Shown here: positions 1 through 50,245 of the stretch, piece by piece
Layout: each line of letters begins with the position of its first letter
How positions within the stretch are numbered: the stretch's first letter is position 1
Source of the DNA: a virus
Virus record (IMG/VR): IMGVR_UViG_3300021467_000006
Span: 1-64,000 of that record
Direction: 5' to 3' (one strand)
DNA: 64,000 bases
Made by a program: the position numbers and the translations under genes
Notes under the pieces: model-generated
Database searches by the model: none
Told to the model about the DNA's origin: nothing
Seen by the model: the letters and a program-made list of their open reading frames with translations, nothing else

Positions 1-44
1 CCCCCCCCTAATTATTATAGAGAATATAATAATAATTATTATCA

Positions 45-360
45 TACCAGACAAACTAATTGATAAAAAATTATCATAACTAATATTAAAAAATTATCAT
101 AATTTTTATTATGATTTTTATGTATACCAAGTCAATTAATTGATAAAAAATCATCATAATTTTTGTTATGAATTTTATGTATGCCTATTATTAAAAATAT
201 CATAACAATTATTAAAAAAACATCATAATTTTTGTTATGAATTTTATATGTAGCTATTATTATGAATTTTGCTTATAGTTACTACTATAGATTTTGTATA
301 TACCAACTAGTTGATAAAAAATTATCATAATTTTTGTTATGAATTTTACTTATACCAAGC
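45..360. repeat. Degenerate AT-rich repeats carrying TCATAA-N6-TTATGA palindromes
   Basis: Imperfect copies of a unit of roughly 55 bases follow one another. The unit contains TACCAA, TTGATAAAAAA and TCATAATTTTTGTTATGA. Perfect TCATAA-N6-TTATGA palindromes lie at 97-114, 154-171, 223-240 and 325-342. The same 18-bp palindrome occurs next to promoters elsewhere in the window, so this cluster is probably a protein-binding array. It could also belong to an origin. No gene is visible inside it. Confidence 0.7.
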
Positions 361-960
361 CAACACATCCCCCACGCCCCTATACAAAAAACCTGGCATT
401 TTGGCACATTTCTTGTCATCTCCTCAGAACTGCCACAATTTTATTGCACTCATTGTTAATATTATAAACATAAAAATAATAACATCATAATCATAATTAT
501 GATATCGTTGCAGAATGTAATATAACTGCAGTAAAACTATTGCAGTTATAACAGTATTATTACTAATCCCTATTATAATATGTGCGATTATTTCATTGCA
601 CCTAGCCCTGGATGCAATAAAATATTTGCACTGCGTGAAATGGCACAATAAAAAAATCACGATTATCTGCAAAGCTATATATAATAATGATTTACCAGCT
701 ATTAAAAAATTTAATACTTAATAATTATGTAAATCAGTAGCAAAAACACAACATATTGTTGTTTTTTTACATCATGAATATAAAATATTGTAATCATTAA
801 ACAAATAGAAAAAATCATAACTTTGGTGTTGCATAAATATCACAATAATTAAGTGCAATAAAATTATTTCACAAAAATTGTTATGAATTTAAGTTATTGA
901 TATCATTAGAGAAATAAAAAATTATGAAAAAGTTATGAAATTGGCATTGTGAATGCATAT
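361..960. other. Non-coding AT-rich region with one further palindrome
   Basis: There is no convincing gene here. One more palindrome (TCATAA TCATAA TTATGA) lies at 485-502. A weak promoter-like pair, TTGGCA at 941 and TATTAT at 962, has only a 15-bp spacer and could drive the first genes. An 82-codon minus-strand frame at 424-672 has no ribosome site and looks spurious. Confidence 0.5.
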
Positions 961-970
961 ATATTATGGC

Positions 971-1017
971 GTCCGGCTCGTTGAGCCGTACGAGCTGGAC
1001 ACATTATTAACAACGGC
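971..1017 (+). promoter_or_regulatory. Pseudoknot leader RNA, copy 1
   Basis: An 11-bp hairpin (971-981 with 990-1000, one G-U pair) closes an 8-base loop TGAGCCGT. After a 12-base A/T linker comes ACGGC at 1013-1017, which pairs with the loop GCCGT at 985-989 to make an H-type pseudoknot. The ribosome site AGGAG of the next gene starts 6 bases later. Copy 2 at 1447-1497 keeps the loop, linker length and ACGGC but has an unrelated stem that still pairs. Translation control is inferred. Confidence 0.7.
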
Positions 1018-1035
1018 ATGAGAGGAGAAACAAAG

Positions 1036-1251
1036 ATGTTAGAATTAAATCCTAACTACAATAAAGCCAATGAACAAACATGGTGTTACCACGTCGAAAT
1101 AATCGACGAAAAAGGTAACACTATAGAAGTTATTAATTACCAAGTCACTACCGATGGTGGTGAACCTGGATGGGAAGACTTGGAAGGATACTTTGAAGAA
1201 AGGTACCCTGAAGCCGAAGAAATTATTTGTAATTTAATAGATGTATGTTAG
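1036..1251 (+). CDS. Small acidic protein of unknown function
   Basis: The product is 71 residues, acidic, and has no recognised domain. An ATG at 1018 is in frame but directly follows the pseudoknot strand. The ATG at 1036 sits 8 bases after AGGAG and is preferred. It is the first gene of the + strand series and the first of two governed by a pseudoknot leader. Confidence 0.8.
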   Translation: MLELNPNYNKANEQTWCYHVEIIDEKGNTIEVINYQVTTDGGEPGWEDLEGYFEERYPEAEEIICNLIDVC

Positions 1252-1262
1252 GAGGATTTATC

Positions 1263-1433
1263 ATGATAAACTTATTACCAATAGAAGAAAAAGAGACAGT
1301 TAAGGCTAGGATTGATAATCCTAATGATCTTGACGTTCTCTTTTATTTGTTTCCGCATAGTGAGATTACTGTCTATGCGGAAGAAAACAATAGTTATTTA
1401 GCCATTATTAAAGCGGATACTACAATTAATTAG
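1263..1433 (+). CDS. Small protein of unknown function
   Basis: The product is 56 residues. The ATG at 1263 lies 8 bases behind GGAGG, whereas an in-frame ATG at 1245 overlaps that ribosome site. The last codons lie inside the terminator stem at 1411-1442. It probably shares a transcript with the gene at 1036. No homologous family is recognised. Confidence 0.75.
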   Translation: MINLLPIEEKETVKARIDNPNDLDVLFYLFPHSEITVYAEENNSYLAIIKADTTIN

Positions 1434-1447
1434 TATCCGCTTTTTTT
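1411..1447 (+). terminator. Rho-independent terminator
   Basis: A perfect 12-bp stem (1411-1422 with 1431-1442) and an 8-base loop are followed by seven T residues. It overlaps the end of the preceding gene and ends where the second pseudoknot hairpin begins. Confidence 0.9.
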
Positions 1448-1497
1448 GTCTATACCAGTTATGCCGTACTGGTATAGACAGTATTAATAATAACGGC
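1447..1497 (+). promoter_or_regulatory. Pseudoknot leader RNA, copy 2
   Basis: A perfect 13-bp hairpin (1447-1459 with 1468-1480) closes the 8-base loop TATGCCGT. A 12-base linker separates it from ACGGC at 1493-1497, complementary to loop bases 1463-1467. The ribosome site of the next gene follows at once. The stem differs in sequence from copy 1 but both arms change together. No separate promoter is seen, so it probably acts on read-through RNA. Confidence 0.7.
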
Positions 1498-1514
1498 TTA
1501 TAGGAGGCAAAGTT

Positions 1515-1709
1515 ATGGCTAGGAATTGGAAAAAGATTTATGAAGAATTCTTGGAGTCTCTACCTACAGAGACTCTTAAGGCAAGCTATGGGCATCATCC
1601 AGTTCTAGAGTCTATGAATAGACTCAAGTTGGATGGATGGAATGCCTATAAATGGTACTATGGGCAAGGCAGAGCTACGGAAAAAGAGCTTTTGCAATGC
1701 CAAAAATAA
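1515..1709 (+). CDS. Small protein of unknown function
   Basis: The product is 64 residues, rich in Trp, Tyr and Lys, with no recognised domain. An AGGAGG ribosome site precedes the ATG, and the gene follows the second pseudoknot leader directly. That leader is probably its main control point. Confidence 0.8.
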   Translation: MARNWKKIYEEFLESLPTETLKASYGHHPVLESMNRLKLDGWNAYKWYYGQGRATEKELLQCQK

Positions 1710-2759: not shown

Positions 2760-3041
2760 ATGTTAAAAAGAAGAATTTATAAAGTTTATACTTATGATCT
2801 ATGGCGTGACGAACATGGATACTATGTTAACGATTGCTATGAAACAGATATAATCATTACAGTTAATGACTATACTTCTGACAGAGAAATAATAAAGAAA
2901 CTAAAAGAAAAAGGATTCCTTAAGAAGAATTTGCGATATAAATCTTTTGAAGTATATGGAGATATTGACGACTTATATATTGATTATTTTAGCCAAAAAA
3001 CAGGTTTAATACCGGTATGTAAACTAAGATTAATTGATTAA
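2760..3041 (+). CDS. Hypothetical protein, tandem paralogue A
   Basis: The product is 93 residues. It shares about half of its positions with the next gene, including YDLWRDE-GYYVN near the N-terminus and QKTGL-PVC-LRL at the C-terminus. The two are a local duplication. AGGAGG precedes the ATG. Function is unknown. Confidence 0.85.
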   Translation: MLKRRIYKVYTYDLWRDEHGYYVNDCYETDIIITVNDYTSDREIIKKLKEKGFLKKNLRYKSFEVYGDIDDLYIDYFSQKTGLIPVCKLRLID

Positions 3042-3060
3042 TGATAAGGAGGTAAAAGTT

Positions 3061-3357
3061 ATGAAAAAAGTATATAAAATATATGATTATGATTTGTGGC
3101 GTGATGAGTATGGATACTATGTTAATAATGTTTTTGGTACGGATTTTACTGTAGCTTTGAATGATAATGCTACAGATTTAGAAATAATAAGAATGTTAAA
3201 AGATAAGGGATTTATTAACAAATACACACGGAATAAATCCCTTAACATTTCTGGTGATGAATATTGCATTTACGTTGAATATTGCACACAAAAGACAGGG
3301 TTAATGCCTGTATGTGAATTAAGATTAGTAACCGAAAAAACCATTGGATTAGTATAG
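3061..3357 (+). CDS. Hypothetical protein, tandem paralogue B
   Basis: The product is 98 residues and is a paralogue of the preceding protein with the same N- and C-terminal signatures. The ATG at 3061 follows AAGGAGG at normal spacing; an earlier in-frame start at 3034 would overlap the upstream gene. Function is unknown. Confidence 0.85.
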   Translation: MKKVYKIYDYDLWRDEYGYYVNNVFGTDFTVALNDNATDLEIIRMLKDKGFINKYTRNKSLNISGDEYCIYVEYCTQKTGLMPVCELRLVTEKTIGLV

Positions 3358-20764: not shown

Positions 20765-20941
20765 ATGGGAATTACATTGAAAGAATATGTAAGAGGGATG
20801 CTAATTAAATATAAAGAATATCCTGAAATGAAGAATATCCTAAAAGAATTATATGAGGAATGGTATGGAAAACCTGAACAACAAAAAATCGCTACAATAC
20901 AAGGTGCTTGTTGCACTTTGGAACAAACATGTAGTTCTTGA
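20765..20941 (+). CDS. Small hypothetical protein
   Basis: The product is 58 residues, helical for about 40 residues, then ACCTLEQTC at the end. AGGAGG lies 7 bases before the ATG. It follows the primase-helicase directly and may be its small partner. Confidence 0.7.
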   Translation: MGITLKEYVRGMLIKYKEYPEMKNILKELYEEWYGKPEQQKIATIQGACCTLEQTCSS

Positions 20942-21773: not shown

Positions 21774-21780
21774 AAAGCTG

Positions 21781-21990
21781 TTCCCCCTATGTCCGCTATC
21801 ACAGGGGGAATGGTAAGAAAGGAGGTTAGGAGAGGAAGGAATGGCTTTTGTGAATTCAAGAATGTTATAACAAGGCATAATGATTTTGTCAAAACTTTTT
21901 TGAAATTGAAAGGAGACATAAAAAATGTTATATAAAAATTCATCGGAAAAAATAAAAAAGAAGCCCTCAATTTCTAGGACGATTGAGGGC
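21781..21990 (+). promoter_or_regulatory. Two leader hairpins before the AEP-like primase
   Basis: A TTCCCCCT/AGGGGGAA stem (21781-21788 with 21803-21810) lies just past the upstream gene. A perfect 9-bp stem GCCCTCAAT/ATTGAGGGC (21963-21971 with 21982-21990) lies 21 bases before the primase start and overlaps a 23-codon frame at 21925-21996 that has its own AAGGAG. This could be an attenuator in which translation of the short frame opens the hairpin. Confidence 0.5.
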
Positions 21991-49485: not shown

Positions 49486-49974
49486 AAATAAACCATTCAT
49501 TAATATCGTTATTTCATAACAGGCATAACGCCTAATATATAAAAAATCATAATAATATCATAATAACTATACATTACTCCATATATCCCCTTATTATCAC
49601 TCTTAGCTCTTAACACCCTAACCTGTAGTTATCTAACATCATCCTATATGTTATCATTCTAACTGTTATCATGTTATCATATTTCATAATTTTTCATAAT
49701 AACCCTATATCTTCACTGGTGGTGAATTAGAGAATTATCCCCCCTATATATGCTACTATATAGGGGGAGATTATTATAGCCTTATAGTAGCATATATAAG
49801 GGGGATAATTCTTTAATAATAAAAATCATAATAATTATTATGAAAAATATATATTAGACGTTATGTCGGGAATGATATAAGTGTTTTCTATATTAACTAA
49901 AAAATCATAATAAAAATTATGAAATTTATTGTTATGAAAATCATAATAATTATTATGAAAAAATTATGATGGTT
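49486..49974. other. Convergence zone: operators and a long inverted repeat
   Basis: No gene is seen. Three palindromes of the TCATAA-N6-TTATGA family lie at 49826-49843, 49905-49922 and 49941-49958, with several half-sites around them. The region separates + and minus strand gene sets. Confidence 0.65.
49731..49812. repeat. Long inverted repeat (about 29 bp arms)
   Basis: Bases 49731-49760 pair with 49783-49812 apart from one mismatch. The arms contain CCCCC and TATATGCTACTATA. The 22-base loop holds another TAGGGGGAGA. It may stop transcription from both sides, form a cruciform, or be a recombination site. Confidence 0.7.
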
Positions 49975-50245
49975 TTTCTTCACTGTATGGAGCCATCGTC
50001 GAATCAGCATTTAAGCGCTGGACTGGGGTGGTGTGGCCTCCCAGGTCTGGCTTTACAGGCCATTCGCTGTTGCATATCCCCCAACAGCGAATCCCCAGCC
50101 TATCCCCTGCCTTTCGGCACCAGGACGGGGTGCCCTCTTAAAGGGCAAATCTGGGCAGCGCCACTTTTACAGCGAGGAGACGCCAGCCTCGGCTCATATA
50201 CATCCATATCCTATAAAAATACAGATGTATCCTCAGAGCCTTTAG
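49975..50245. ncRNA. GC-rich, heavily folded segment, candidate structured RNA
   Basis: This stretch is far richer in G and C than its surroundings. It has an 11-bp stem (ATTCGCTGTTG with CAACAGCGAAT, 50063-50093), GGCACC/GGTGCC near 50117-50134, GCCCT/AGGGC close behind, GGACTGGGG pairing with CCCCAGCC across the 11-bp stem, and an outer arm GGCTC...GAGCC ending near 50240. On the minus strand a TGCC-GAAA-GGCA hairpin has a GNRA loop, which favours that strand. No promoter is clear and no family is recognised. Confidence 0.55.

What the first reader, a model, noticed from the sequence alone, without database searches (positions are those of the whole stretch)
971..1497. Two matching pseudoknot leaders with exchanged stems
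Both leaders have a long hairpin, an 8-base loop ending GCCGT, a 12-base A/T linker and ACGGC just before the ribosome site. The stem sequences are unrelated yet perfectly or nearly paired in each, so both arms changed together. Loop and ACGGC are fixed and complementary. This looks like a small translation-control element, or a binding site for a phage protein or ligand.
Basis: seen in the sequence. Interest (0 to 1): 0.75.

Follow-up and report, generated by a model that had tools for sequence, protein, structure and literature searches.

The report
Twin RNA pseudoknots before phage genes
Two small unrelated genes of an uncultured phage start with the same knotted RNA shape right beside the ribosome-binding site, and a related phage keeps the shape with matching paired changes, so it is probably a portable switch or stabiliser for making those proteins.

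Summary
At 971-1017 and 1446-1497 lie two H-type pseudoknot leaders with the same loop end (GCCGT), the same partner (ACGGC), similar A/T-rich linkers and different 11-14 bp stems; they are the only copies in the 96 kb phage record. The one near relative found carries a third copy with compensatory changes in both helices (S2 U-A to C-G, a stem A-U to G-C), besides one wobble and one C·A mismatch. The genes behind the three leaders are unrelated, and in the relative the block 'leader 1 + gene A' is absent, so leader and small ORF look like a removable unit. The knot ends 15-18 nt before the start codon, against the Shine-Dalgarno site. Likeliest role: cis control of translation initiation (or 5'-end stability) of small early genes, perhaps through a trans factor; this is inferred, not shown. 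No Rfam family matches the leaders. Eight viral scans, one genome-collection scan and model searches of 1,184 genomes gave no convincing copy outside this lineage. Closest analogue: the T4 gene 32 operator; guanidine-III membership fails. New variant of a known kind, moderate interest.

The parts
736..969 (+). Early promoter/operator-like region, 85% identical in G001; the similarity stops at 969, directly before leader 1
   Evidence: 900-969: 93%. No sigma-70 match of normal spacing leads into leader 1; the promoter itself is inferred
971..981 (+). Leader 1, stem S1 5' arm
982..989 (+). Leader 1 loop TGAGCCGT; 985-989 GCCGT is the S2 5' strand
990..1000 (+). Leader 1, stem S1 3' arm
1001..1012 (+). 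Leader 1 A/T-rich linker
   Evidence: conserved columns
1013..1017 (+). Leader 1 ACGGC, S2 3' strand
1023..1027 (+). Shine-Dalgarno AGGAG of gene A
1036..1251 (+). Gene A, 71 aa, acidic (pI 4.05), no family; no match in G001
1263..1433 (+). Gene B, 56 aa; kept in G001 (47% identity), where no pseudoknot precedes it
1410..1443 (+). Terminator-like hairpin whose U run reaches leader 2; an analogous hairpin is seen at the same place in G001
   Evidence: G001 copy read by eye
1447..1459 (+). Leader 2, stem S1 5' arm
1460..1467 (+). Leader 2 loop TATGCCGT; 1463-1467 GCCGT
1468..1480 (+). Leader 2, stem S1 3' arm
1481..1492 (+). Leader 2 A/T-rich linker
1493..1497 (+). Leader 2 ACGGC, S2 3' strand
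1502..1507 (+). Shine-Dalgarno AGGAGG of gene C
1515..1709 (+). Gene C, 64 aa, basic (pI 8.8), no family; an unrelated ORF stands in its place in G001

Best explanation
Each leader is the 5' untranslated part of a small early phage gene and folds into an H-type RNA pseudoknot: stem S1 of 11-15 bp, a 3-nt first loop, S2 of 5 bp (GCCGY:RCGGC) stacked directly on S1, and an A/U-rich linker of about 12 nt running along S1. It ends 4-5 nt before the Shine-Dalgarno sequence and 15-18 nt before the start codon, where a bound 30S subunit would meet it. Shown from sequence: the anatomy, compensatory change in both helices, the relative's third copy, and that the gene behind the leader changes while the leader stays. 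Inferred: that the knot acts in cis on translation initiation of whichever ORF it precedes, and that a trans factor (phage or host protein, less likely a ligand) reads the conserved loop, S2 and linker to set when initiation is allowed. Leader and ORF appear to be gained or lost as one unit.
For: Exact shared S2 and loop end in two leaders with different stems. Third copy in G001; over the three copies 96.2% of pair cells are standard pairs, 6 pairs are changed on both sides (5 in S1, 1 in S2), 0 of 500 shuffles reach this, slid controls are at most 38.5% paired. Linker and loop are more alike than the stems. Upstream fold energy of genes A and C ranks 2nd and 4th of 88 ORFs with a Shine-Dalgarno-like site. 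S2 duplex -6.7 to -8.4 kcal/mol. Genes A, C and the G001 gene are unrelated by BLAST. G000/G001 similarity stops at 969, and a second similar stretch stops just after leader 2 and its Shine-Dalgarno site.
Against: No expression data. Only three copies, two of them orthologous, so the covariation test has little power. G001 has a C·A mismatch and a U·G in S1. The ribosome site is not sequestered: its fold energy ranks 50th and 44th of 88. Gene B in G001 sits directly behind the same promoter-like region without a knot. Folding without pseudoknots pairs part of ACGGC/GCGGC elsewhere in all three.
Confidence: 0.5

Rival explanations
1. Constitutive 5' stabiliser and insulator: the knot is not regulated. 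It caps the early mRNA against 5'-end decay and keeps upstream RNA (such as the terminator hairpin before leader 2) away from the ribosome site.
For: Leader 1 lies directly behind the conserved promoter-like region, so the mRNA may begin at or near S1 (start site inferred). Leader 2 directly follows a terminator-like hairpin in both phages. S1 is long and stable.
Against: A plain hairpin would do this; it does not explain why loop, S2 and linker sequences are held while S1 sequence is free.
Confidence: 0.27
2. Ligand-binding riboswitch of a new small class.
For: H-type knot ending just before the Shine-Dalgarno site, shared core, unrelated downstream genes; the S2 letters GCCGU/ACGGC recall guanidine-III (consensus recalled, not from a call).
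Against: No Rfam riboswitch matches over the leaders on the + strand up to E 10; guanidine-III's conserved CG dimer in the first loop (PMC7736828 passage) is absent (UGA, UAU, UAA); downstream genes are phage orphans; only one lineage.
Confidence: 0.08
3. DNA-level element: operator or recombination site made of inverted repeats, with RNA folding a by-product.
For: Similarity between the two phages breaks at the leaders, as at a swap point; GCCGT/ACGGC is also an inverted repeat in DNA.
Against: S1 sequences differ, so there is no shared palindromic operator; the spacing between GCCGY and RCGGC differs (23 and 25 nt, 24 in G001); G-U pairs occur; fixed place just before the Shine-Dalgarno site on the sense strand.
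Confidence: 0.07
4. Chance: two ordinary hairpins with a chance loop match.
For: Each match alone is not rare: 1.7-3.6% of shuffled downstream stretches hold some 5-nt loop complement; other hairpins of similar score occur (10 sites with a Shine-Dalgarno-like sequence in both phages, the three leaders included, against 6 in the reversed controls).
Against: The same loop end, S2 and linker twice, and compensatory change in the relative.
Confidence: 0.03

Closest known systems
T4/T2/RB69 gene 32 mRNA pseudoknot (translational operator bound by gp32)
   Same: Phage H-type pseudoknot with coaxial stems in the 5' leader, upstream of a ribosome site, near an A/U-rich single strand (PMC535899 and PMC3014915, passages seen).
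   Different: In T4 the knot lies about 67 nt upstream of the start, with more than 40 nt of less structured RNA with UUAAA repeats 3' of it; here the knot ends 15-18 nt before the start. T4's precedes the single-strand-binding protein gene; here unrelated small orphan genes, two copies in one genome.
Guanidine-III riboswitch (ykkC-III)
   Same: H-type knot close to the Shine-Dalgarno site; S2 letters GCCGU/ACGGC similar (consensus recalled).
   Different: First loop has no CG dimer flanked by A; S1 is far longer (recalled); no Rfam match.
IncI/IncB plasmid repZ pseudoknot (recalled)
   Same: Loop pairs with a stretch next to the Shine-Dalgarno site.
   Different: repZ has a leader peptide and an inhibitory hairpin over the ribosome site; no unusual fold over the ribosome site here. 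The paper search listed 3 papers, none read.
PeSL promoter-stem-loop cassettes of T4-type phages
   Same: Early region of small orphan genes, stem-loop and promoter/terminator next to swapped ORFs (secondary mentions in PMC4503421 and PMC3950731, passages).
   Different: The original papers are not held; as recalled, PeSLs are promoter/terminator stem-loops, not pseudoknots abutting the ribosome site.
ToxI RNA of type III toxin-antitoxin systems (recalled; review PMC5086642 seen only in a search listing)
   Same: Short RNA pseudoknots next to a small gene.
   Different: ToxI is a tandem repeat array before an endoribonuclease gene; here two single knots before different genes, and no defence-system match for genes A-D.

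Membership tests
H-type RNA pseudoknot (structural class) | Hairpin loop pairs with a downstream single strand, with loop lengths that permit coaxial stacking | tested here: met
   Sequence anatomy in three copies and one both-sided change in S2; not probed chemically
T4 gene 32 translational operator | Pseudoknot about 67 nt upstream of the start with a less structured UUAAA-rich stretch between | tested here: not met
   Knot ends 18 and 17 nt before the start in the window and 15 nt in G001; feature from PMC535899/PMC3014915 passages
T4 gene 32 translational operator | Precedes the gene for a single-strand-binding protein | tested here: not met
   Genes A and C: no Pfam family; the G001 gene was not scanned, and is unrelated to A and C by BLAST
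T4 gene 32 translational operator | Bound by the encoded protein | not testable with these tools
   Needs a binding assay
Guanidine-III riboswitch | Conserved CG dimer flanked by A in the first loop | tested here: not met
   First loops UGA, UAU, UAA; feature from PMC7736828 passage
Any Rfam family (guanidine-III, preQ1, SAM-II and others) | Match to the family covariance model | tested here: not met
   No gathering-level match in the window except EGFOA elsewhere, none in L017; up to E 10 only sub-threshold rows, e.g. SAM-II 21.6 bits (threshold 44) at 1388-1446 on the other strand
PeSL cassette | Early promoter plus stem-loop repeated between shuffled ORFs | tested here: inconclusive
   Leader 1 is next to a conserved promoter-like region, leader 2 next to a terminator-like hairpin; only two copies; original definition not readable here
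Type III toxin-antitoxin (ToxI) | Tandem pseudoknot repeats followed by a ToxN-like gene | tested here: not met
   Two single copies 475 nt apart with genes between; no PADLOC match for genes A-D at E 0.1; feature recalled

The most novel reading that the evidence does not exclude
A phage-specific class of pseudoknot leaders that travels with small early ORFs as a ready-made translation unit and is read by a trans-acting phage or host factor through the fixed loop, S2 and linker, so that several unrelated accessory genes are switched together after transcription.
Probability: 0.25. Interest if true: 0.7.

Novelty: new variant of a known kind. Interest (0 to 1): 0.47.

Why it matters
A 2010 review calls the T4 gene 32 knot perhaps the only viral example of a pseudoknot used in autoregulation of translation (PMC3014915 passage). 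A second, unrelated phage leader family with compensatory evolution, reused in front of different orphan genes, would show that phages use portable RNA knots to control accessory genes after transcription, and it offers a short testable module. Paper searches in the held library listed nothing whose title or abstract start describes this motif; nothing wider is claimed.

Tried and rejected
Exact leader pattern with the A/T linker in viral contigs: 7 stretches, none with a proper S1. GCCGTAC/ACGGC pattern with Shine-Dalgarno: 0. GCCGY/RCGGC version: G001 (positive control) plus L171, which has no S1. Same pattern in genome contigs: 31 stretches, only L027 and L033 with a stem. L027 precedes a carbonic-anhydrase-like gene and L033 a gene that reads like hisS (both named by eye). 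In the 8 family leaders of the L027 gene that could be read, none keeps the knot (L063 keeps a similar hairpin but not the partner); L064 is a fragment, L067 and L068 were not read. For L033, 7 of 16 non-self loci could be read, at approximate starts, and none keeps it; the nearest relative, L070, could not be placed. Neither L027 nor L033 scored at E 10 with model R1. Both are taken as lookalikes, the second less firmly.

Covariance model R1 (S1 and sequence; built from the same three copies): in the two phages it finds the three (78-89 bits); the next rows are the reverse strands of the two leader-2 stems, 22 and 15 bits. Genomes: 2 of 391 from the class of G003, both lacking S2; 0 of 398 from the class of G501; 0 of 395 from the phylum of G502; 0 of 45 virus records (45 of the 80 terminase loci were given). 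Sets over 40 genomes were run with strict filters; G001 was recovered by the same tool at E 9.5e-20.

Search for more relatives in viral contigs: gene C and DNA polymerase (none), terminase (G001 only), protein 2286-2738 aligned with its G001 homologue (G001 only), terminase alignment with four database phages (the best 80 at most 37% identity). Named phages: no DNA match to 900-2200; only distant protein matches or none.

Hypothesis that the knot frees a masked ribosome site: not supported. One search read the wrong frame and was discarded.

Full report
What is there. The window is the first 64 kb of a 96,320-base virus record with phage replication, terminase, portal and tail genes, 33.6% G+C. 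The early genes run on the + strand from about 1 kb. The two leaders lie before the first gene (A, 1036-1251) and before the third (C, 1515-1709); between them are gene B and a terminator-like hairpin at 1410-1443. GCCGT-N20..30-ACGGC occurs nowhere else in the 96 kb, and no shuffle of 100 of the window held two of the N15..30 form.

Is it more than chance? One leader alone would be weak: 1.7-3.6% of shuffled downstream stretches contain some 5-nt complement of the loop, and a generous structural scan of both phages found 10 hairpin-plus-complement sites followed by a Shine-Dalgarno-like site (the three leaders included) against 6 in reversed sequence, two of the others with stem scores as high as the weaker leaders. 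What makes the case is repetition and covariation. The two window leaders share loop end, S2 and most of the linker while 8 of the first 11 stem pairs differ, and the only near relative found (G001, IMGVR_UViG_3300022188_000008, terminase 95% identical) has a third copy at G001:C1:42592-42526, - strand.

Covariation. On the alignment of the three, the named pseudoknot has 96.2% standard pairs. Six pairs change on both sides, five in S1 and one in S2 (U-A to C-G). None of 500 shuffles reached these numbers, and structures slid by 1-3 columns pair in at most 38.5% of cells. Against it: G001 has one C·A mismatch and one U·G in S1, leader 1 has a C·A just outside its 11 bp, and three sequences are few. 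Between leader 2 and its G001 homologue alone, four helix pairs changed: two compensated, one to U·G, one broken.

Geometry. S1 11-15 bp, first loop 3 nt, no nucleotide between S2 and S1, linker about 12 nt: by established pseudoknot geometry (recalled) this permits coaxial stacking with the linker crossing S1. S2 as a free duplex is -6.7 kcal/mol (U-A form) or -8.4 (C-G form). S2 ends 4-5 nt before AGGAG(G) and 18, 17 and 15 nt before the three start codons. Genes A and C have the 2nd and 4th strongest upstream folds of 88 ORFs with a Shine-Dalgarno-like site, but unremarkable folding of the ribosome site itself (ranks 50 and 44; the ORF list is mechanical and includes doubtful ORFs).

A unit that moves. 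Similarity between the phages runs from 736 to 969 and stops directly before leader 1 (900-969 is 93% identical). In G001 the promoter-like region is followed at once by the homologue of gene B (47% identity); leader 1 and gene A are missing. A second similar stretch covers 1343-1507, that is gene B's end, the terminator-like hairpin, leader 2 and its Shine-Dalgarno site (68%), and stops where the coding part begins: the gene behind it in G001 is unrelated to C and to A. So the leader stays while the gene changes, and leader plus gene can be absent as a block. Direction (gain or loss) is unknown.

How it probably works. Shown by sequence: structure by covariation, position, gene exchange. Inferred: it acts in cis on initiation of the attached ORF, standing at the edge of the 30S footprint; because loop, S2 and linker letters are held while S1 is free, a factor probably reads them, though tertiary contacts of the linker with S1 could also hold them. 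The main rival is a constitutive 5' stabiliser or insulator. A riboswitch is less likely: no Rfam match and only orphan genes behind it. A DNA operator is unlikely because the palindromes differ and the spacing varies.

How widespread. All eight viral-collection scans and the one genome-collection scan are spent; besides G001 only lookalikes appeared. The covariance model found no convincing copy in 391, 398 and 395 genomes of three groups or in 45 virus records. The element is so far confined to one phage lineage with no close named relative; the host is unknown, so the right host group may not have been searched.

Compared with the known. It works like the T4 gene 32 operator in being a phage leader pseudoknot, but position and gene differ, so it is not filed as a member. 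Guanidine-III membership fails on the first loop. The cassette behaviour recalls PeSLs of T4-type phages, whose original papers could not be read here.

Noticed in passing
window 40013-40270: A 67-nt tRNA-Gly(acc)-like RNA (ARAGORN; Rfam gives only a weak tRNA-Sec match, no ordinary tRNA at E 1) followed by two long hairpins that both contain TACAGCAA (GGGAGG..CCTCCC and GGCTGGGT..ACCCAGCC), directly upstream of an RNA-binding-protein gene (phrog_850; Pfam DUF2828 and DUF7788). The noncoding stretch averages 93% column identity with G001. It could be a Y-RNA-like tRNA mimic with a Ro-like partner (Ro reading recalled)..
   Followed up: partly
window 50024-50146, - strand: EGFOA RNA (RF02955, 49.8 bits, above its gathering score) in the region between the early and late gene blocks.
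   Followed up: no
window 1-900 and 49500-50000: Many iterated TCATAAT..ATTATGA palindromes and related direct repeats in both noncoding regions, with similar repeats in G001: possible repressor or origin sites.
   Followed up: no
window 49726-49817: Long inverted repeat, 35-nt arms 94% complementary, with a C-run/G-run core.
   Followed up: no
G001 position 20810 (- strand), homologue window 21780-21830: Hairpin whose loop GCCTC could pair with GAGGC overlapping a Shine-Dalgarno site in G001; the loop is not kept in the window's homologue.
   Followed up: partly
window 2760-3357: Two adjacent paralogous small genes sharing the motif YDLWRDE.GYYVN; G001 appears to have only one at this place.
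   Followed up: no
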